32,339 nt of DNA from Balneolaceae bacterium (lineage in GTDB: Bacteria; Bacteroidota; Rhodothermia; Balneolales; Balneolaceae), in the NCBI GenBank assembly GCA_007693395.1, contig REDS01000067.1:1-32339 (forward strand), read 5' to 3'. The notes beneath the pieces are model-generated. The model was not told the DNA's origin and ran no database searches. It saw only the letters and a program-made list of their open reading frames with translations. The translations under genes and the position numbers were made by a program. Shown here in pieces: positions 1,279-30,134 of the stretch. Each line of letters begins with the position of its first letter. The first letter of the stretch is position 1.

Positions 1279-2118
1279 CTACTTTTCACCAACCAAAACC
1301 AAAAGGGGTATTTTAGAATAAATTCGCATTTTCTTGGTGTGGTTTTCATCAAGAAGTGATCGAAGAACAGACTTTTTGTATCTGTTTAAAACCACTAAAG
1401 ATATCTTTTTAGAGTCTACGAATTTTGTCATGGTTCCAACGATATCCTCGTCTATAATCAGGTCAAATTTGAGTTTATTCAGAAGTTCTTCCTCGCTGGC
1501 AAGTTCCTTAATTCCTCTGAATTTAATTTCTGTTTCAAGGTTTTTTTCTTTAGTAACATGCAACAGATGAACAGTTGAGCCAAATAATTTTGCAAAACTT
1601 GCTGTTTCTTTGAGATTTCTAAAATCGCCCTCTCTGAAATTTGTTGTAAAAAGGAAGTTTTCAAACTTCAGCTCTTTGGCATATTCAGGTACAGACAGAA
1701 CAGGTACAGTAGAACTCATCATGATATCTGCTGAAACGCTGCCAAAAAGTAATGTGCGGCTGCTCTCTTCAGCTCCACTTCCCATTACTACCAGGTCAAC
1801 TTTAGAATCACCTATAGCTTCGATAATCTGGGATACCGGTTTTCCAATGCGCAATTGTTGCTTCAGTTTAATGTTTTTACCGGCAAATTTTGTATAAAAC
1901 TCTTCTTCCATTCTGTTGAGATGCTGTTCGGCATTCTCCTTCAGGTAATCAATTACACCCTCCACATTAGTGGGAAAATTAAAGGGTGGCTCAATCACAT
2001 TTAGAATGGTTAATTTCGCTCCTGTTTTTTCAGCAATATGGCCGGCATACATCAAAGCCATTTTGGAGCAGGCAGAAAAATCCGTAGGGATAAGTATATG
2101 TTTTGCTGATGAAATCAT
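1279..2118 (-). CDS. Tandem-domain universal stress protein (UspA family)
   Basis: The 279-residue cytoplasmic protein has two Usp domains in tandem. The first (about 1-145) begins ILIPTDFSACSKMALMYA and carries the VVMGSGAEESSRTLLFGSVS nucleotide-loop region followed by TVPVLSVP, the usual end of a Usp domain. The second (about 150-279) keeps the fold-like strands (NFLFTTNF, LVVLNRY) and the final IPLLVLVGEK, but its glycine loop is lost, so only the N-terminal half looks able to bind ATP. Two-domain Usp proteins with one degenerate half are common. Such proteins act in tolerance to starvation and oxidative stress, but the specific role here is unknown. It is a single-gene unit with its own terminator. 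Confidence 0.9.
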   Translation of the reverse strand: MISSAKHILIPTDFSACSKMALMYAGHIAEKTGAKLTILNVIEPPFNFPTNVEGVIDYLKENAEQHLNRMEEEFYTKFAGKNIKLKQQLRIGKPVSQIIEAIGDSKVDLVVMGSGAEESSRTLLFGSVSADIMMSSTVPVLSVPEYAKELKFENFLFTTNFREGDFRNLKETASFAKLFGSTVHLLHVTKEKNLETEIKFRGIKELASEEELLNKLKFDLIIDEDIVGTMTKFVDSKKISLVVLNRYKKSVLRSLLDENHTKKMRIYSKIPLLVLVGEK

Positions 2119-2357: not shown

Positions 2358-3006
2358 CTATTTAGTACCAAAATATTTAGCAACGGCATAGTAATCAGAG
2401 AGATCAGGGAAATCCGGACCAGCTTTTGCAGGCATTCCCCCCGGGATAATTACATAGCGATGATAGTTGCCAGATGCTATTGTTTGGGGATCTGCATCTC
2501 CGGCCAGGTCGTGAAAGATAAGTACAATCTTTTCGGGTGCAAGTTCAGAGTTCAAAAACTGAGTGGTATTCTTAGAAATTGATTGAATAATTGAAAGGGC
2601 ATGCGTTCTTGTGGATGTACCCGTACATCGAACATACACCATCACAGTACCGCTATCAATAATTTCCTCGTCAATAGCTGGCTCAGTAATGGGATATTCT
2701 CTTCTGGTTTGTCCAAAGAAATTAAATGCACTTGTTCAAACTGAAATTTCGAATTCTATCCACTCAGAGAAGATTACATTTGCAGTACCAGGCTCTCCCT
2801 GCGGCCCACGGTCACCAGTTGGTCCACGGTCTCCCTGAGGGCCTCTTTCACCCTGTGGTCCGGGGTCACCTTGTTGCCCATGAACTCCCTGCGTTCCCGG
2901 TTGGCCTTGTGCTCCTTCAGGACCGGCCGGGCTTTCACATGCAGCGCTAAAGAAAAACAAAGATAGCAGCAAGAGAAAAAGTATGCTTGTGGTTTTTTTT
3001 AATCAC
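2358..3006 (-). pseudogene. Collagen-like lipoprotein gene with a start-proximal frameshift and an internal stop
   Basis: On the minus strand a good ribosome site (GGAGGT, 3011-3016) precedes a GTG at 3006 that opens ATT and then a run of eight A. Reading seven A instead of eight joins it to [21 protein letters not shown], a typical lipoprotein signal with lipobox SAAC. Fifteen Gly-X-Y collagen-like triplets follow (GPE to GEP), then [17 protein letters not shown], an in-frame TGA at 2736-2738, and a second stretch in the same frame, from TSAFNFFGQTRREYPITEP to AVAKYFGTK at 2358. The repaired product would be about 215 residues: lipid-anchored, collagenous stalk, globular C-terminal domain. 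UGA is a normal stop elsewhere here (for example the genes ending at 8267 and 9204). The gene is therefore probably inactive, unless the A-run slips and the stop is read through. A sequencing indel in the A-run is possible. Confidence 0.75.
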
Positions 3007-3254: not shown

Positions 3255-3689
3255 ATGAAAAAATATTACTTACTACTATTCACTTTACTTTTTTCACTAA
3301 CTCTGTTTAGTTGCAGTGATAACAGTGTTGGCACATCGAACGACGAGCTTGATGAATGTTTTGGCACATCCATTCCATTTCCGGCTACGGCAACAATAAC
3401 GGCTTGCATAGGGCGGCAGGCAGGGTCCGATTTGATACGAGGTGCAGTTTTTGAGCCGGGTATATCATGGTCAGAAACGCTGAAATTCTTCTCTGATAAT
3501 TACAGCTCAGGCAGATGGAATCTTGTGAAAGAAGATATACCCACTACAACAGCTGGTGAGCGTACCGCAGAATGGGACATTATCGGGCCAGACTTCGATG
3601 TACTTATCTCTGTAACTGCTTTTGGCGAAGGAAGCAGCACATTTATGGTTGGCACCATTGGAATGTACGATTCGGGTGTGGTTAACTAA
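3255..3689 (+). CDS. Small secreted lipoprotein of unknown function
   Basis: This 144-residue product has a Lys-rich start, a hydrophobic core and the lipobox LFSC with Cys20, so it should be lipidated and attached to a membrane. The mature part starts SDNSVGTS and has two further cysteines (in DECFG and ITACIG), possibly a disulfide. The rest is a compact domain containing SWSETLKFFSDNYSSGRW and a C-terminal VGTIGMYDSG. The middle (W-x-E-x-L-x-F-F-x2-N-Y) is reminiscent of small domains that recur in bacterial lipoproteins, but I do not recognise the family. It is the first of six exported proteins on the same strand with gaps of 20-58 bases, suggesting co-transcription. Confidence 0.8.
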   Translation: MKKYYLLLFTLLFSLTLFSCSDNSVGTSNDELDECFGTSIPFPATATITACIGRQAGSDLIRGAVFEPGISWSETLKFFSDNYSSGRWNLVKEDIPTTTAGERTAEWDIIGPDFDVLISVTAFGEGSSTFMVGTIGMYDSGVVN

Positions 3690-3747
3690 TTCAATAAACC
3701 ATCAATAAACAAATAGACGTATTCCACCAACAAAACCACAACATACC

Positions 3748-4458
3748 ATGAAAAAGCTACTCACATACACAGGTTTGGCCATTTTGCTGGTTACAGGAAT
3801 GGCAATAGCACCTATCACATTAGAGAGTGATAAGGGAGAGGAAATAGAGCAACAAACAACTGAGGAAATCAAGGTGACATATGTGCTTCGATTTGATGAA
3901 TCATCCTATGGAAGTTTTGTTCGCCAAACTGGAGAACGCGGTGTCTCCCCAGCAGATTTTGGCAGATGGATTGCCGGTAATGGAACCGGAAGCGTACAGA
4001 TTGGCAGAGATGGAGGCTACGCTCAAATAGAAAATTCAAAGCTTATCATCATGAAGATCGACAGAAGCGGAAGAATACTGGCAGAGCAGTCGGTGAATGT
4101 TTCACTTTCTGAACGGGGAGAGGTGCTGCGTTCTCCTCAAATTGCAGCAGTTATCGATAGAATGTTTCCGGGTAATATACTATACATGGGTGATTCCCTC
4201 ATTTCTGATGGATTGTTTGCCTATGATGCTTTTTACCCGGTTCGCTCAATAGACAATGCAAAGAGAGCCTTTCAACAAAACGCAACCCGATACTTAGGCA
4301 GGCCACCGGGAAATGTTATGTCGGAGACGGCAGATCTGGATAACATGGTAGGAATAGGAATGATGCTGTGGCCCGATACAAGCCGCATGGATGATGCAGA
4401 TAAAATTTCTGTACAGCCCTCGGGCGGCTTGTTTATTCTTATTCCTGATCAATTTTAA
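3748..4458 (+). CDS. Secreted protein of unknown function
   Basis: This 236-residue protein begins MKKLLTYTGLAILLVTGMAIA, a classical signal peptide probably cleaved after Ala21, with no lipobox cysteine. It is the only non-lipoprotein of the cluster. The mature protein opens with an acidic stretch (ESDKGEEIEQQTTEE), then a mixed alpha/beta region with FGRWIAGNGTGSVQIGRDGGYAQIENSK-like strands and a hydrophobic end, GGLFILIPDQF. There are no cysteines and no known catalytic motif. It lies 58 bases after the preceding lipoprotein gene and 20 bases before the next, so it is probably in the same transcript. Function unknown. Confidence 0.75.
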   Translation: MKKLLTYTGLAILLVTGMAIAPITLESDKGEEIEQQTTEEIKVTYVLRFDESSYGSFVRQTGERGVSPADFGRWIAGNGTGSVQIGRDGGYAQIENSKLIIMKIDRSGRILAEQSVNVSLSERGEVLRSPQIAAVIDRMFPGNILYMGDSLISDGLFAYDAFYPVRSIDNAKRAFQQNATRYLGRPPGNVMSETADLDNMVGIGMMLWPDTSRMDDADKISVQPSGGLFILIPDQF

Positions 4459-4478
4459 AGAAATACGATGGTGCGGAA

Positions 4479-5063
4479 ATGCATAAACCATTGAAAAATT
4501 ATCTGCTCATTGTGCTTTTTACGGCTGCATTTATTTGGTCATGCTCTGATGCAAACTCAGCAAATGAATTAGACGATGAGGACATAGGTGAGGTTACCTT
4601 CACAATTAGCGGAGATTTAGAAGGTACATCGTCAGGCGCTGCTTTTTTTGATAATAATACATCAGGCAATGGTGGTGATTACTACTTCGAACTGATTTTC
4701 ATGGACGGAATAGACGGCCCCGAAACGTTTCGCTTTACGATTGGCCGGTATCGTGGTGAGTCGTTCTCGGCGCCCACACCCGGAACATACGAAATCGATG
4801 GGCGGCCATTCAATTTTACAGCAGCTTACGAGTATACAACCGGTAGTTTTACTGGAACCGAACAATATACAGACCAGTATTGCGAGGATGCCTTCGAAAC
4901 CGGCGGCGAACTGGTCATAAGTTCTGTTTCCGATTCTCAAGTGAGTGGCAGTTTTAATTTTACAGTTGCCGGTTTTGATGATTTAACCGATTGTAACCTG
5001 CTTGGTTATGTAGAAATCTCCGGCAATTTCAGAGCTGTACCGTACGATAAATTATTCTTATAA
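4479..5063 (+). CDS. Lipoprotein of unknown function, paralogue A of a tandem pair
   Basis: This 194-residue lipoprotein has a signal ending IWSC (Cys22). The mature part is rich in beta-type segments: GEVTFTISGDLEGTSSGAAFF, then PGTYEI, FTAAYEY, GSFTGTEQY, a Cys pair, GELVISSVSDSQVSGSFNFTV and GYVEISGNFRA. The same ordered blocks occur in the next gene (5090-5689), so the two are a tandem duplication that has diverged strongly. The SGD-x2-G-x4-A-x-F opening and VSGSF near the end resemble the general layout of exported beta-sandwich lipoproteins of this phylum, but I cannot name a family. Confidence 0.8.
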   Translation: MHKPLKNYLLIVLFTAAFIWSCSDANSANELDDEDIGEVTFTISGDLEGTSSGAAFFDNNTSGNGGDYYFELIFMDGIDGPETFRFTIGRYRGESFSAPTPGTYEIDGRPFNFTAAYEYTTGSFTGTEQYTDQYCEDAFETGGELVISSVSDSQVSGSFNFTVAGFDDLTDCNLLGYVEISGNFRAVPYDKLFL

Positions 5064-5089
5064 CCATCAAGCAAAACAAATAGTTAGTT

Positions 5090-5689
5090 ATGATACGACA
5101 CATCGTTCAATATCTGTCAATAGTAACAGGAGTGTTAATTTTAATATCCGGCTGTTCAGACAGCTCCTCAGACCCTGACCTGGGAGGTGATCTTGGTCAG
5201 GTTTCACTTACTGTGAGTGGTGATGTTCAGGGTGAAAAAACCGGCATGGCCGATTTTTATGGCCAAGATCTTGGTAGTTTACACTATTGGGAGCTAAGTT
5301 TTAATGACTTTAGTCCGCAAACTTACTCTTTACAACTATCACTTCAGGATTTTGAAGAAATTGAAAGGCCAGCTCCAGGTAGTTATGAAATAGGTTTTAA
5401 CTCACCAAATCCATTTGGTGAGTCAGGCCCTCCGGTATTCACAGCAATCTATACACATATACCAAATGGAAGTTTTACGGATGCCGTAGAATATAGCAGC
5501 GGCATACTTTGCGGTGATGATAGAACTCAATGGGGCACACTGGTGATTTCAAGCTCAACTTCCTCAGAGGTGAGCGGATCATTTACTTTTTTTGCAATCG
5601 ATATTGATATCGACAACTCCGGTAACTGTGTAATTCTCGGCGAGATCGAAGTTGCCGGAGAGTTCAGTGCAAGGGCGCGTCAATTCTGA
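5090..5689 (+). CDS. Lipoprotein of unknown function, paralogue B of a tandem pair
   Basis: This 199-residue lipoprotein has a clear lipobox LISGC (Cys22). It follows its neighbour by 26 bases and shares its block order: GQVSLTVSGDVQGEKTGMADF, PAPGSYEIGF, FTAIYTHIPNGSFTDAVEY, a conserved Cys (ILCGDD), GTLVISSSTSSEVSGSFTFF, a second Cys (GNCVILG) and IEVAGEFSARA. The two cysteines sit at matching places in both paralogues and may form a disulfide in the periplasm or at the cell surface. Function unknown. The pair are best read as one family of about 170 mature residues, probably all-beta. Confidence 0.8.
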   Translation: MIRHIVQYLSIVTGVLILISGCSDSSSDPDLGGDLGQVSLTVSGDVQGEKTGMADFYGQDLGSLHYWELSFNDFSPQTYSLQLSLQDFEEIERPAPGSYEIGFNSPNPFGESGPPVFTAIYTHIPNGSFTDAVEYSSGILCGDDRTQWGTLVISSSTSSEVSGSFTFFAIDIDIDNSGNCVILGEIEVAGEFSARARQF

Positions 5690-5726
5690 TTTTTTTCAAA
5701 CAAAAGATTAAAAAAACATCAAAGCT

Positions 5727-6263
5727 ATGAATAATAAAGTTATTCGATACCTGAAAACTATCACGATAATCGCACTGCTTACCTTCTTTGCGTCTTGTGC
5801 AGGGAATGGAGACAGTTCGGATGCCACAATCAGCCAAGAAAATGACCTTGCAGAACAGCGAACTCCACAAGTTACTTCTGAGGAAGTTTTCGGTATGGCT
5901 GACTGGGGAACCGGAGAACCAAAACCAATACATATGGTAACTTGTGGTTTTGATGGACATGGCTTATACAGCATTTGGGGCCGGGGTGAACTGTTCTCTG
6001 TGAGAGTGGAGTTTCCGGAGTCCGATGGTGAGGTTGATTTTGAGAATCCTCAAGATGTAATTCTCAATTTTGAACGTGACCACGAGTATGGCCCCTTCAG
6101 GTTTCACATGTTAGGCTCGATGGGTATGACGGGAGAAGTTTCTGCATCGCTTGAGGGGGCGAGTGGAGAAGCAGTGTTACAATATAGCAATTTAGAAATC
6201 GACGGTTCTCTTCTAACCTATGATTTAACCTGTTCACATGATCGAAACCGGCGCCGTCTTTAG
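5727..6263 (+). CDS. Lipoprotein of unknown function
   Basis: This 178-residue protein has a signal ending FASC (Cys24), followed by a low-complexity Ser/Asp/Gln linker. The folded part starts around residue 65 with IHMVTCGFDGHG and ends TYDLTCSHDRNRRRL. The two terminal cysteines, each in a strand ending V/L-T-C, suggest a disulfide closing a beta sandwich. The outline (VTC near the start, TCS at the end, a glycine-rich strand between) loosely recalls LpqH-type lipoproteins of actinobacteria, but this is only a resemblance in layout. The C-terminal RNRRR tail is unusual for a secreted domain. It is co-oriented with its neighbours at gaps of 37 and 55 bases. Confidence 0.75.
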   Translation: MNNKVIRYLKTITIIALLTFFASCAGNGDSSDATISQENDLAEQRTPQVTSEEVFGMADWGTGEPKPIHMVTCGFDGHGLYSIWGRGELFSVRVEFPESDGEVDFENPQDVILNFERDHEYGPFRFHMLGSMGMTGEVSASLEGASGEAVLQYSNLEIDGSLLTYDLTCSHDRNRRRL

Positions 6264-6318
6264 AGTGCCAGTCTGAATTAAATTGATTCACAAATAACAA
6301 ACCAAAACAGACAGAAAA

Positions 6319-7080
6319 ATGATAAGGATATCAGAAGTAAACAGATTACCTGCTGTGGGGGTTTTCATAACAATAATTGCGTTTTTATTGATCTCCTGTG
6401 GCACCGAAAGTAACGATATTGATGAGACCGATGGTTTTAGAGATGGAATTTTAAACGAAATTTGGGAGCTGCTGGATGAAGGTATGATCAGTTCCTTAGA
6501 GAATGATCTTGGCATGCCAATCCATCGTGGGGCAAATCCTCCTGACTTTTCTGCATTTTTTGATGAAGAAATGAGGGGTGATGGCGTTACATTTGAGATG
6601 GCACCTCACTTATTACATAGATCAACTGTTGAAAGTGATCAAGGCAACAATGAGCCGGGAACTCCCTGGGCGCCTCGTGCTTTTCGGTTCAGCAATCAGA
6701 ATCTGCAAAATTATACCATCAATTTTGCAACAAGAGCATCCCAGACTGATGACAATACAGTCGCTGCAAACGGATCATACATTATTGGCTTCGATAATCA
6801 CTTCACCATGTTTGCATTTTTGGAAAATGTTCGAGGTGAAGGAGTTGTAAAAAGCCTGCGCATGTTTTCGGGTATTCTGACAGATCAGGGAGTATCCGAA
6901 CCGTATACCAGTACATTTATGATTGATAATAGTGGAATAAGAGGAGTTATACCCAATGGTACGGGGCGCTCATTTGTGGATGGAGACGACTTCGCAGAGA
7001 TCATACCATGGCCGGAAGGAAATTCCATGAGCATAGAAAATCAAGTTTATACAGATCTTGAAAATGAGATTTATAAGTAG
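6319..7080 (+). CDS. Lipoprotein of unknown function, last gene of the secreted-protein run
   Basis: This 253-residue protein has a lipobox LISC (Cys27) after a somewhat long N-region. The mature part begins with an acidic linker, then a helical segment (FRDGILNEIWELLDEGMISSLENDLGMPIHRG), and a beta-rich C-terminal domain with repeated polar strands (YTINFATRAS, GSYIIGFDNHFTMFAFLENVRGEG, TSTFMIDNSGIRGVIPNGTGRSFVDGDDF). No catalytic motif was seen and the family was not recognised. The second half resembles a small ligand-binding beta fold more than an enzyme. It closes the six-gene run; no good hairpin terminator follows. Confidence 0.75.
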   Translation: MIRISEVNRLPAVGVFITIIAFLLISCGTESNDIDETDGFRDGILNEIWELLDEGMISSLENDLGMPIHRGANPPDFSAFFDEEMRGDGVTFEMAPHLLHRSTVESDQGNNEPGTPWAPRAFRFSNQNLQNYTINFATRASQTDDNTVAANGSYIIGFDNHFTMFAFLENVRGEGVVKSLRMFSGILTDQGVSEPYTSTFMIDNSGIRGVIPNGTGRSFVDGDDFAEIIPWPEGNSMSIENQVYTDLENEIYK

Positions 7081-7217: not shown

Positions 7218-8267
7218 ATGGCAAAACCTCTTCGTGGGCGCGGATCAGCCCATAACCCTAAAAATCGGTTCAGGAACACGCACCTTCAATATGATATTAA
7301 TGAAGAGACCGGAATCCTTCAAAAGCCAAAAACACAACTTTTAAAAGATCACACATCCGGAATCATCTCCAGAAACAATAGTCCGGATATCGGCTTTGAC
7401 GTGAGTGTAAATCCATACCGTGGCTGTGAACATGGGTGTGTGTATTGCTATGCCCGTCCCACGCACGAATTCCTGGGAATGAGCGCCGGGCTCGATTTTG
7501 AGTCGAAAATCGTAGTGAAGTGCGATGCACCGGATCTGCTTCGAAAAGAGCTGGCCAAAACATCCTGGAAGCCGCAAACCCTGGTGATGAGTGGTGTGAC
7601 CGATCCCTATCAGCCCATCGAAAAAAAACTGGAGATAACCAGGGGTTGTGTTGAAGTGCTGGCGGAATGTTATCATCCACTGGTCATCATCACAAAAAAT
7701 TACCTGGTTACACGGGATATTGATTTACTATCAAAACTGGCTGAAAAATATGCTGTGCGGGTGGTTCTCTCCATTACATCATTGGACCCATCCATCACAG
7801 AAACCATGGAGCCAAGAACATCAAGACCCCAAAAACGCCTGAAAGCGGTGCGTGAACTCACAGCTGCAGGAATACCGGTTCATGTAAACATCGCCCCGGT
7901 CATTCCCGGTTTAACGGATGATGAAATTGTGCCAATTATGGAGGCAGCGGCAGAAGCCGGGGCAAATTCGGTATCACTGGTTAATCTGAGATTGCCGTTG
8001 GGTGTAAAGGATCTGTTCATCAAGTGGCTGGAGGACCATCACCCAAACCGAAAGGAGAAAGTTCTGAACCGAATTAAAAGCCTGAAAAATGGAAAGCTAA
8101 ACAGATCAGAGTTTGGCGAAAGGTTTCGCGTTGAAGGCCCATATGGAGAGCAGGTGCGGCAGCTTTTGAACATACATTCAAAAAGGCTTGGGTTAAATCA
8201 AGATAAAGTGTCTTTGAATCCCAATGAATTTATAAGACCGGAGATGGGTCAGCTGCGACTGTTTTGA
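7218..8267 (+). CDS. PA0069-family radical SAM protein
   Basis: This 349-residue cytoplasmic iron-sulfur protein has the radical-SAM cysteine triad at Cys70, Cys74 and Cys77 (CEHGCVYCYARPTHEF), preceded by the family-specific NPYRGC. Other family signatures are MSGVTDPYQPIEKKLEITRG and EPRTSRPQKRLKAVREL. Length and order match the PA0069/Rv2578c group, whose substrate has not been established to my knowledge. It is often called a spore-photoproduct-lyase-like protein only because of the radical-SAM domain. It stands alone, with a candidate 11-bp repeat operator right before the ATG and no evident Shine-Dalgarno, and is followed by a structured repeat element. Confidence 0.9.
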   Translation: MAKPLRGRGSAHNPKNRFRNTHLQYDINEETGILQKPKTQLLKDHTSGIISRNNSPDIGFDVSVNPYRGCEHGCVYCYARPTHEFLGMSAGLDFESKIVVKCDAPDLLRKELAKTSWKPQTLVMSGVTDPYQPIEKKLEITRGCVEVLAECYHPLVIITKNYLVTRDIDLLSKLAEKYAVRVVLSITSLDPSITETMEPRTSRPQKRLKAVRELTAAGIPVHVNIAPVIPGLTDDEIVPIMEAAAEAGANSVSLVNLRLPLGVKDLFIKWLEDHHPNRKEKVLNRIKSLKNGKLNRSEFGERFRVEGPYGEQVRQLLNIHSKRLGLNQDKVSLNPNEFIRPEMGQLRLF

Positions 8268-8622: not shown

Positions 8623-9204
8623 ATGGCAGCAGTACAATCAACGATGCTCGAACTCGGTACAAAAGCTCCCGGCTTTTCGCTAAAAGATGCCGTTTCGGGC
8701 AAAACCGTATCACTTCGCGATTACAAGGGAAACAGGGGAGTTCTGGTTATGTTCATATCGAACCACTGCCCGTATGTAAAACTAATCAAAGAACATTTGG
8801 CTCAATTTGCAGCCGATTATATGCCAAAAGATGTGGCGGTGGTTGCAATCGCATCAAACGATGTTGAAAACTACCCGGATGACAGCCCCGAAAAAATGAA
8901 AGAGGATGCCGAAAAGTTTGGATACCCGTTCCCCTATCTTTTTGATGAAACACAAGAGGTGGCAAAAGCTTACAAAGCCGCCTGTACACCCGATCTCTTT
9001 CTGTTTGATGAAAAGCACGAACTCTACTATCGGGGACAGTTTGATGATGCCCGGCCAAAGAACGATATCAAGCCAACAGGTAAAGATTTAAGAGAAGCCA
9101 CAGACCTTATGCTGGCCGGTAAACCTGCACCTGAAACTCAGATTCCAAGCATAGGCTGTAATATTAAATGGAAAAAAGGGAATGAACCGGAGTACTTTGG
9201 CTGA
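8623..9204 (+). CDS. Thioredoxin-like (AhpC/TSA-type) redox protein
   Basis: The 193-residue protein starts at the ATG at 8623; the reading frame extends to a TTG at 8575, but those residues are not family-like. It has a thioredoxin fold with the peroxiredoxin-like start LGTKAPGFSLKDAVSGKTVS, and the motif FISNHCPYVK with a single Cys49 in place of a CxxC pair. Further cysteines are Cys121 in AACTPDLFLFD and Cys179 in IPSIGCNIKWK; the TPD cis-proline region fits the fold. This matches the single-domain thioredoxin family whose members carry NHCPYVK, with no signal peptide. Peroxidase or reductase activity is not established. Its stop is 4 bases before the pdxH start, so the two are translationally linked. 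Confidence 0.85.
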   Translation: MAAVQSTMLELGTKAPGFSLKDAVSGKTVSLRDYKGNRGVLVMFISNHCPYVKLIKEHLAQFAADYMPKDVAVVAIASNDVENYPDDSPEKMKEDAEKFGYPFPYLFDETQEVAKAYKAACTPDLFLFDEKHELYYRGQFDDARPKNDIKPTGKDLREATDLMLAGKPAPETQIPSIGCNIKWKKGNEPEYFG

Positions 9205-9208
9205 TAGC

Positions 9209-9850
9209 ATGACAACGGATATTTCCTCCCTGCGAGAACGATATACAAAAGGCACCCTGGATGAGTGCAACCTTCCCGTTAACCCTGTTCATCTTTTTCG
9301 GAACTGGTTTGACGATGCCATACAGGCCGGCATACATGAGCCTAACGCTATGGCACTTGCCACAGTTGATGCCGGGTGCAATCCGAATGTACGGTACGTA
9401 TTGATGAAAGGGTTAAGTGAAGCATCCATCCGGTTTTTCACCAATTATGAGAGCAGAAAAGCCACAGAAATTGAGGCAAATCCCACTGTATCTGTTCTCT
9501 TTTGGTGGGGAGAACTGGAGAGACAAGTACGCATTCGCGGTTCAGTGAAAAGAATATCAGAAGCTGAAAGTGAGACATATTTTAATTCCAGGCCTGCCGA
9601 GAGTCAAATCGGGGCGTGGGCATCGCCGCAAAGCAGTGAAGTTAAAAACAGGGAAGAGCTGGAAAGCCGTTTTCAAGAAACAAAAGAGAAATTTGCTGAT
9701 GGAAACATACCGAAACCTCCGTTCTGGGGAGGATATGAGATTCTTTTTTCATCGATGGAATTTTGGCAGGGGAGGCCCGGAAGAATGCACGACCGTGTAG
9801 AGTTTATCCTACAAAATGGAGAGTGGACCAGGCGAAGGCTGGCACCGTAA
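9209..9850 (+). CDS. pdxH: Pyridoxamine 5'-phosphate oxidase
   Basis: This FMN-dependent enzyme oxidises pyridoxine or pyridoxamine phosphate to pyridoxal phosphate, the last step of the B6 salvage route. The 213-residue product from the ATG at 9209 matches the family end to end: LRERYTKGTLDE at the start, RYVLMKG and NYESRKATEIEANP for FMN and phosphate contacts, RPAESQIGAWASPQSS, PPFWGGYEI, EFWQGRPGRMHDR with active-site residues, and the terminal RRLAP. An upstream in-frame ATG at 9182 would overlap the preceding gene by 23 bases; 9209 fits the usual length better. It is tightly packed with the thioredoxin-like gene and trmB. Confidence 0.96.
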   Translation: MTTDISSLRERYTKGTLDECNLPVNPVHLFRNWFDDAIQAGIHEPNAMALATVDAGCNPNVRYVLMKGLSEASIRFFTNYESRKATEIEANPTVSVLFWWGELERQVRIRGSVKRISEAESETYFNSRPAESQIGAWASPQSSEVKNREELESRFQETKEKFADGNIPKPPFWGGYEILFSSMEFWQGRPGRMHDRVEFILQNGEWTRRRLAP

Positions 9851-30123: not shown

Positions 30124-30134
30124 ATAAGTGATAG

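What the first reader, a model, noticed from the sequence alone, without database searches (positions are those of the whole stretch)
3255..7080. Six-gene run of exported proteins of unknown function, with a tandem paralogue pair
Five lipoproteins and one Sec-type secreted protein lie on one strand with gaps of 20-58 bases, and two of them (4479 and 5090) are clear but divergent duplicates with matching cysteines. None has a recognisable enzyme motif. Such a compact block suggests a surface or periplasmic assembly or a set of secreted effectors not yet described. The block sits next to a decayed collagen-like lipoprotein, so the locus may be a variable surface-protein region.
Basis: inference. 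Interest (0 to 1): 0.6.

Follow-up and report, generated by a model that had tools for sequence, protein, structure and literature searches.

The report
Shuffled lipoprotein island beside core genes
This is a run of six small exported proteins, five of them predicted to be lipid-anchored, in an uncultured soda-lake bacterium; related species swap, lose and mix these genes one by one, so it looks like a variable cell-surface region rather than a fixed machine.

Summary
In detail: six co-directional genes (A 3255, B 3748, C1 4479, C2 5090, D 5727, E 6319) encode five predicted lipoproteins and one Sec-exported protein, with gaps of 20-58 bp. C1 and C2 are divergent paralogues (35% identity, paired cysteines). 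The inferred single assembly is not supported. In 79 related genomes A, B and D occur only in one genus of Balneolaceae; several species keep a similar order (A, C-type, B, C1, C2, D) before a conserved radical-SAM gene. Content varies, the site is empty in other species, and E, B and C relatives occur elsewhere. Gene trees conflict strongly: C1 groups with one relative (100/100); C2, D and the flanking Usp gene with another. Synonymous divergence jumps between neighbouring genes. Best reading: a recombining hotspot carrying exchangeable, purifying-selected lipoproteins, probably on the surface. C1/C2 are related to DUF6252 but score below its cut-off; C1 is modelled as a meander of beta strands. 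A new lead: relatives of C, E and another family from this locus recur behind a ~2,000-aa plus ~690-aa secreted protein cassette elsewhere, so they may be exchangeable partners of a large surface protein. Surface exposure, ligands and co-transcription are untested.

The parts
3255..3689 (+). Gene A: 144-aa predicted lipoprotein, no known family; most conserved member of the block (62-90% identity in six relatives)
3748..4458 (+). Gene B: 236-aa predicted Sec-exported protein without lipobox, no known family; relatives also outside the locus, once next to two C-family genes (G017:C178)
4479..5063 (+). Gene C1: 194-aa predicted lipoprotein, DUF6252-related (below cut-off); AlphaFold2 model is a beta meander, mean pLDDT 81.7
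5090..5689 (+). Gene C2: 199-aa predicted lipoprotein, paralogue of C1 (35%), separate ancient clade of the same family
5727..6263 (+). Gene D: 178-aa predicted lipoprotein, no known family; two allele types (76% vs 37-40% identity) among relatives, remnant in G010
6319..7080 (+). Gene E: 253-aa predicted lipoprotein, no known family; at this locus in G010 and G020, otherwise unlinked in relatives of several families
7218..8267 (+). Right flank: radical-SAM gene; in five relatives the site just upstream of it is empty, in others it holds other cargo
1279..2118 (-). Left flank: universal stress protein gene, conserved left flank in G003, G007, G013, G025
2358..2972 (-). Decayed collagen-like lipoprotein gene (in-frame TGA at 2733-2735); neighbour, not part of the block

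Best explanation
The block is a lipoprotein island: a recombination and gene-turnover hotspot upstream of a conserved radical-SAM gene, holding small exported proteins of several families not shown to be related (A, B, C, D, E and, in relatives, X and F). Shown by computation: gene content varies between congeneric species, orthologues at adjacent positions have conflicting ancestry, the site is empty in other species, copies decay, and the retained genes are under purifying selection. Inferred: homologous recombination through the flanking core genes and through shared neighbouring genes moves the genes between species; the products are lipid-anchored in the outer membrane, probably on its outer face, and work singly or in small sets as binding or shielding proteins, C1/C2 through the loops of a small beta-structured domain stiffened by a disulphide. 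Variation would then reflect changing ligands, competitors, predators or phages in soda-lake sediments.
For: Similar order A-(X)-C3-(B)-C1-C2-D in G007, G013, G025 with altered content, and rearranged in G003. Empty sites with 59-274 bp between the aminotransferase-like gene and the radical-SAM gene in G018, G023, G008, G011, G002; other cargo in G016, G015, G004. Conflicting trees: C1 joins G000+G007 at 100/100, while Usp, C2 and D join G000+G013 at 99.9/100, 99.5/100 and 100/100. Synonymous difference to G007 is 0.48, 0.44, 0.43 for A, B, C1 against 0.70 for Usp, 0.65 for C2, 0.76 for D and 0.60 for the radical-SAM gene. The C paralogues at the locus form separate, mostly well-supported clades rather than recent copies. 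Decay: D remnant of 76 codons in G010, C1 remnant in G020. Purifying selection. No tRNA beside it, no PHROG match, C1 absent from phages and E from plasmids, which fits hotspots that lack mobile elements and show recombination at flanking core genes (PMC5635113).
Against: Surface exposure is not shown: the residues after the lipobox cysteine (SDNS, SDAN, SDSS, AGNG, GTES) only loosely resemble the S-D-D type export signals tested in Bacteroidetes (PMC5080379), and that signal is not established for Balneolaceae. Genomes are draft MAGs, so some absences and joins may be assembly errors. No solved fold matched C1 significantly (best E 0.02), and D could not be modelled (pLDDT 43.5). The partly conserved order with C1-C2-D in four relatives leaves room for some joint function.
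Confidence: 0.66

Rival explanations
1. The lipoproteins are exchangeable partner subunits of a large surface complex. Elsewhere in these genomes a ~2,000-aa Ig/carboxypeptidase-regulatory-like protein (GIANT) and a ~690-aa fibronectin-III protein (FN3) lie in tandem, followed on the same strand by C-, E- or F-family lipoproteins; the window block would be a detached store of such partners.
For: C or E genes directly behind FN3 in G000:C104 (two E), G020:C166 (C array), G012:C259 (C1-C2 relatives, 48 and 46% identical to the window pair) and G017:C330 (C); a 443-457-aa F lipoprotein in G011, G003, G007, G004. F is homologous (E down to 2e-54) to the 454-aa lipoprotein at the window locus of G003. 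4 of 11 informative loci have C or E as next gene, against about 0.03 expected at ten such genes per 3,300. A C gene also lies two genes upstream of the second cassette of the window genome (G000:C134).
Against: The pattern was noticed in three loci before the other eight were checked; of those eight only one has C or E, so the probability is inflated. Three of 11 cassettes have no such lipoprotein behind them. A, B and D were not found there. No cassette lies in the window.
Confidence: 0.2
2. The six genes form one operon encoding a dedicated periplasmic or surface machine.
For: One strand, gaps of 20-58 bp, no + strand terminator-like site in the block; C1-C2-D order kept in four relatives, with A upstream.
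Against: E and B are missing from most copies of the locus, A, B and D are confined to one genus, C1-C2 and A lie on different contigs in G012, and E occurs unlinked.
Confidence: 0.1
3. The arrays are collections of immunity lipoproteins against toxins of competing bacteria, kept as insurance and varied by recombination.
For: Tandem divergent paralogues in a variable locus; five C genes close together in G020:C166.
Against: No toxin gene is seen paired with them; the C-terminal part of GIANT is conserved (51% over 825 aa), not polymorphic; no PADLOC or PHROG match.
Confidence: 0.04

Closest known systems
DUF6252 (Pfam PF19765), family of unknown function
   Same: 12 of 17 C-family members match the model weakly, over its C-terminal half in C1 (best E 8.7e-6; C1 itself 3.3e-4)
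   Different: C1 scores 21.3 bits against a cut-off of 27.2; C2 has no match; so related, not a formal member
Gene-turnover hotspots between core genes (Oliveira et al. 2017, PMC5635113)
   Same: Variable content between conserved core neighbours, empty sites, recombination without visible mobile elements
   Different: Seen here across draft genomes of different species of one genus, not strains of one species; cargo is mostly small lipoproteins
Small beta-barrel surface lipoproteins such as fHbp, NHBA and the barrel domains of TbpB/HpuA (review PMC7857515)
   Same: Lipid-anchored, beta-strand-rich domain; works-like comparison only
   Different: No sequence relation found; fold search not significant (an fHbp chimera ranks third at E 0.029, probability 0.12); ligand and surface exposure unknown
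Surface lipoproteins of Bacteroidetes carrying a lipoprotein export signal (PMC5080379)
   Same: Polar residue and an acidic residue after the lipobox cysteine in A, C1, C2
   Different: One acidic residue where the tested signals have several; no SusC/SusD pair seen in the block

Membership tests
Bacterial lipoprotein (lipobox) | Signal peptide ending in a lipobox with invariant cysteine | tested here: met
   A, C1, C2, D, E by sequence and by conserved cysteine in alignments; B lacks it
DUF6252 (PF19765) | Score above the curated cut-off | tested here: not met
   C1 21.3 bits against 27.2; C2 no match
Gene-turnover hotspot | Variable gene content between conserved core genes in relatives | tested here: met
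Gene-turnover hotspot | Recombination signal in or next to the spot | tested here: met
   conflicting gene trees and jumps in synonymous divergence
Mobile genetic element or genomic island with integrase | Integrase, tRNA or attachment repeats, phage or plasmid relatives | tested here: not met
   only tRNA at 30134; no PHROG match; C1 absent from phages, E absent from plasmids; repeats weak
Surface lipoprotein with Bacteroidetes export signal | S-D-D type or K-(D/E)2 signal after the cysteine | tested here: inconclusive
   SDNS, SDAN, SDSS in A, C1, C2; AGNG in D, GTES in E; signal unknown in Balneolaceae
8-stranded beta-barrel surface lipoprotein (fHbp/NHBA type) | Significant structural match | tested here: not met
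   no PDB match below E 0.001
Single operon | One transcript | not testable with these tools
   only spacing and absence of terminator-like sites

The most novel reading that the evidence does not exclude
C, E and F lipoproteins are exchangeable partner subunits of a giant secreted surface complex of Balneolaceae (GIANT, ~2,000 aa, and FN3, ~690 aa) for which I found no description; the window island is a satellite store from which partners are swapped by recombination, changing the specificity of the complex.
Probability: 0.2. Interest if true: 0.55.

Novelty: new member of a known kind. Interest (0 to 1): 0.34.

Why it matters
It gives four protein families without any database match (A, B, D, E) and a sub-threshold relative of DUF6252 a genomic behaviour: recombining, purifying-selected, variable between species at one site. 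That makes them candidates for what soda-lake Balneolaceae show to their surroundings. The recurrent link of C, E and F relatives with a giant secreted protein cassette offers a first functional handle.

Tried and rejected
Pfam, NCBIfam, PADLOC and PHROGs for the six proteins: no family above cut-off. PDB sequence profiles for C, E, A, D and phmmer for B: nothing meaningful. Foldseek with the C1 model against PDB and viral libraries: only weak matches to beta barrels, none below E 0.001. AlphaFold2 of D with five sequences failed. Profile comparisons D-X, C-E, C-D align only over the signal peptide, so the families are not shown to be related. Palindromic repeat where the radical-SAM gene is missing in G013: found in that genome's locus only among the DNA held. 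Apparent in-frame stops in some genome-search hits: the one checked (G000:C101) is the gene's own terminal stop. Literature search for DUF6252: no paper.

Full report
1. What is there. The six ORFs are at the stated coordinates on the + strand with gaps of 58, 20, 26, 37 and 55 bp. I call them A (3255), B (3748), C1 (4479), C2 (5090), D (5727) and E (6319). A, C1, C2, D and E have a hydrophobic signal ending in a lipobox-type cysteine; B has a signal peptide without cysteine. C1 and C2 are paralogues (35% identity, E 3e-21). Their two mature cysteines (C1 135 and 172) are both present or both absent in every one of 24 family rows.

2. Families. Pfam and NCBIfam give no match above cut-off. C1 scores 21.3 bits against DUF6252 (cut-off 27.2), and 12 of 17 C-family members match that model weakly. 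No PDB sequence relative was found. An AlphaFold2 model of C1 from 24 sequences has mean pLDDT 81.7 and consists of about ten sequential beta strands. Foldseek finds only weak matches, several to designed and natural beta barrels, none below E 0.001. D failed to model (pLDDT 43.5).

3. Who has it. The window lies in a 227-contig genome of 3.56 Mb. Records holding the same loci are MAGs named Balneolaceae bacterium, most of them from the CSSed16 sample series. CSSed-type sample names are used for soda lake sediments of the Kulunda Steppe, with Cock Soda Lake among the sampled lakes, in PMC6146748; that these particular MAGs come from that lake is my inference. Among 79 genomes, A is in 7 including its own, D in 6 and B in 9, all of one genus; C1 relatives are in 23 genomes and E relatives in 17, from several genera. 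In a sample of 198 genomes of the phylum the C profile hits 11 and the E profile 6.

4. The locus in relatives. Between Usp and the radical-SAM gene, G007 has A-X-C3-B-C1-C2-D, G025 A-X-C3-C1-C2-D, G013 A-C3-B-C1-C2-D (its radical-SAM gene is missing), and G003 F-C3-A-C1-C2-D-C4. E is at this locus only in the window, G010 and G020. In G012, A and C1-C2 are on different short contigs. In G018, G023, G008, G011 and G002 the radical-SAM gene directly follows an aminotransferase-like gene with 59-274 bp between: an empty site. In other species the site holds a TPR kinase (G016, G019), a large protein of 761 aa (G015) or an AbiEii-like nucleotidyltransferase (G004). The left flank of the window group (Usp) differs from that of the empty-site group, so a rearrangement also took place. 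Decay: a 76-codon remnant of D in G010 and a C1 remnant in G020.

5. Recombination and selection. The C tree shows C1, C2, two C3 types and C4 as separate, mostly well-supported clades, so the tandem copies are old. Codon-based trees conflict: Usp, C2 and D join the window with G013 (99.9/100, 99.5/100, 100/100), C1 joins it with G007 (100/100). Synonymous difference to G007 is 0.43-0.48 for A, B and C1 but 0.60-0.76 for Usp, C2, D and the radical-SAM gene; to G013 it is 0.49-0.52 for SDR and Usp but 0.63-0.85 for A to D. These jumps between neighbours a few dozen bases apart are hard to explain without recombination. dN/dS is 0.03-0.24 where not saturated (core genes 0.045-0.066), so the genes are maintained; A is among the most conserved, and B and E have the highest ratios.

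6. No mobile element. The only tRNA in the window is at 30134, repeats are weak, C1 has no relative in 50,697 phage records and E none in 72,556 plasmid records, and PHROGs and PADLOC are silent. No ORF between the flanks reads as an integrase. [quoted passage not shown]

7. A second context. C or E genes also follow a tandem of a ~2,000-aa protein with carboxypeptidase-regulatory-like domains (GIANT) and a ~690-aa fibronectin-III protein (FN3): two E genes in the window's own genome (G000:C104), a C array in G020, C1-C2 relatives in G012, one C in G017. In G011, G003, G007 and G004 a 443-457-aa lipoprotein (F) takes that place, and F is homologous to the 454-aa lipoprotein at the window locus of G003. 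By chance about 0.03 of 11 loci would have C or E next; four do. Three of these four were seen before the rest were examined, so the number is not a clean test.

8. Interpretation. Shown by computation: predicted export, old paralogy, variable content, recombination, empty sites, purifying selection. Inferred: outer-membrane anchoring, surface exposure, single or small-set function in binding or shielding. The kind of locus is known; for the protein families I found no description.

Noticed in passing
L063:1441-9449; L160:254-10030; L161:2661-12395; L162:165-9899; L138:5260-9922: Conserved cassette in Balneolaceae: ~580-aa protein (seen in three copies), ~1,960-aa Ig/carboxypeptidase-regulatory-like secreted protein, ~690-aa fn3 protein, then variable lipoproteins; distant fn3 relatives in other genomes sit beside a ~1,100-aa protein and a ~670-aa protein (TPR in the one searched).
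   Followed up: partly
L138:947-4902 (G020:C166): Array of five divergent C-family lipoprotein genes on one strand, with one further ORF between them, directly behind the giant/fn3 cassette.
   Followed up: partly
window:2358-2972 (-): Decayed collagen-like lipoprotein gene (Gly-X-Y repeats) with an in-frame TGA; collagen-like CEGPxG lipoprotein genes flank an E relative in G011 (L067:7791-8342, 9200-9739).
   Followed up: partly
L055:6160-6260 (G013): Where the radical-SAM gene is missing, the sequence carries inverted copies of a GACTTCSGAAG motif, possibly a small repeat element; no strong radical-SAM match in the rest of that genome.
   Followed up: partly
window:24031-25233 (-): ORF of 400 aa that reads like an IS4-type transposase, away from the block; not searched against family libraries.
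   Followed up: no
L128:6716-7382 (G004), upstream of the radical-SAM gene: AbiEii-like nucleotidyltransferase gene with a small neighbouring ORF at the same hotspot site, a possible toxin-antitoxin or defence cargo.
   Followed up: partly
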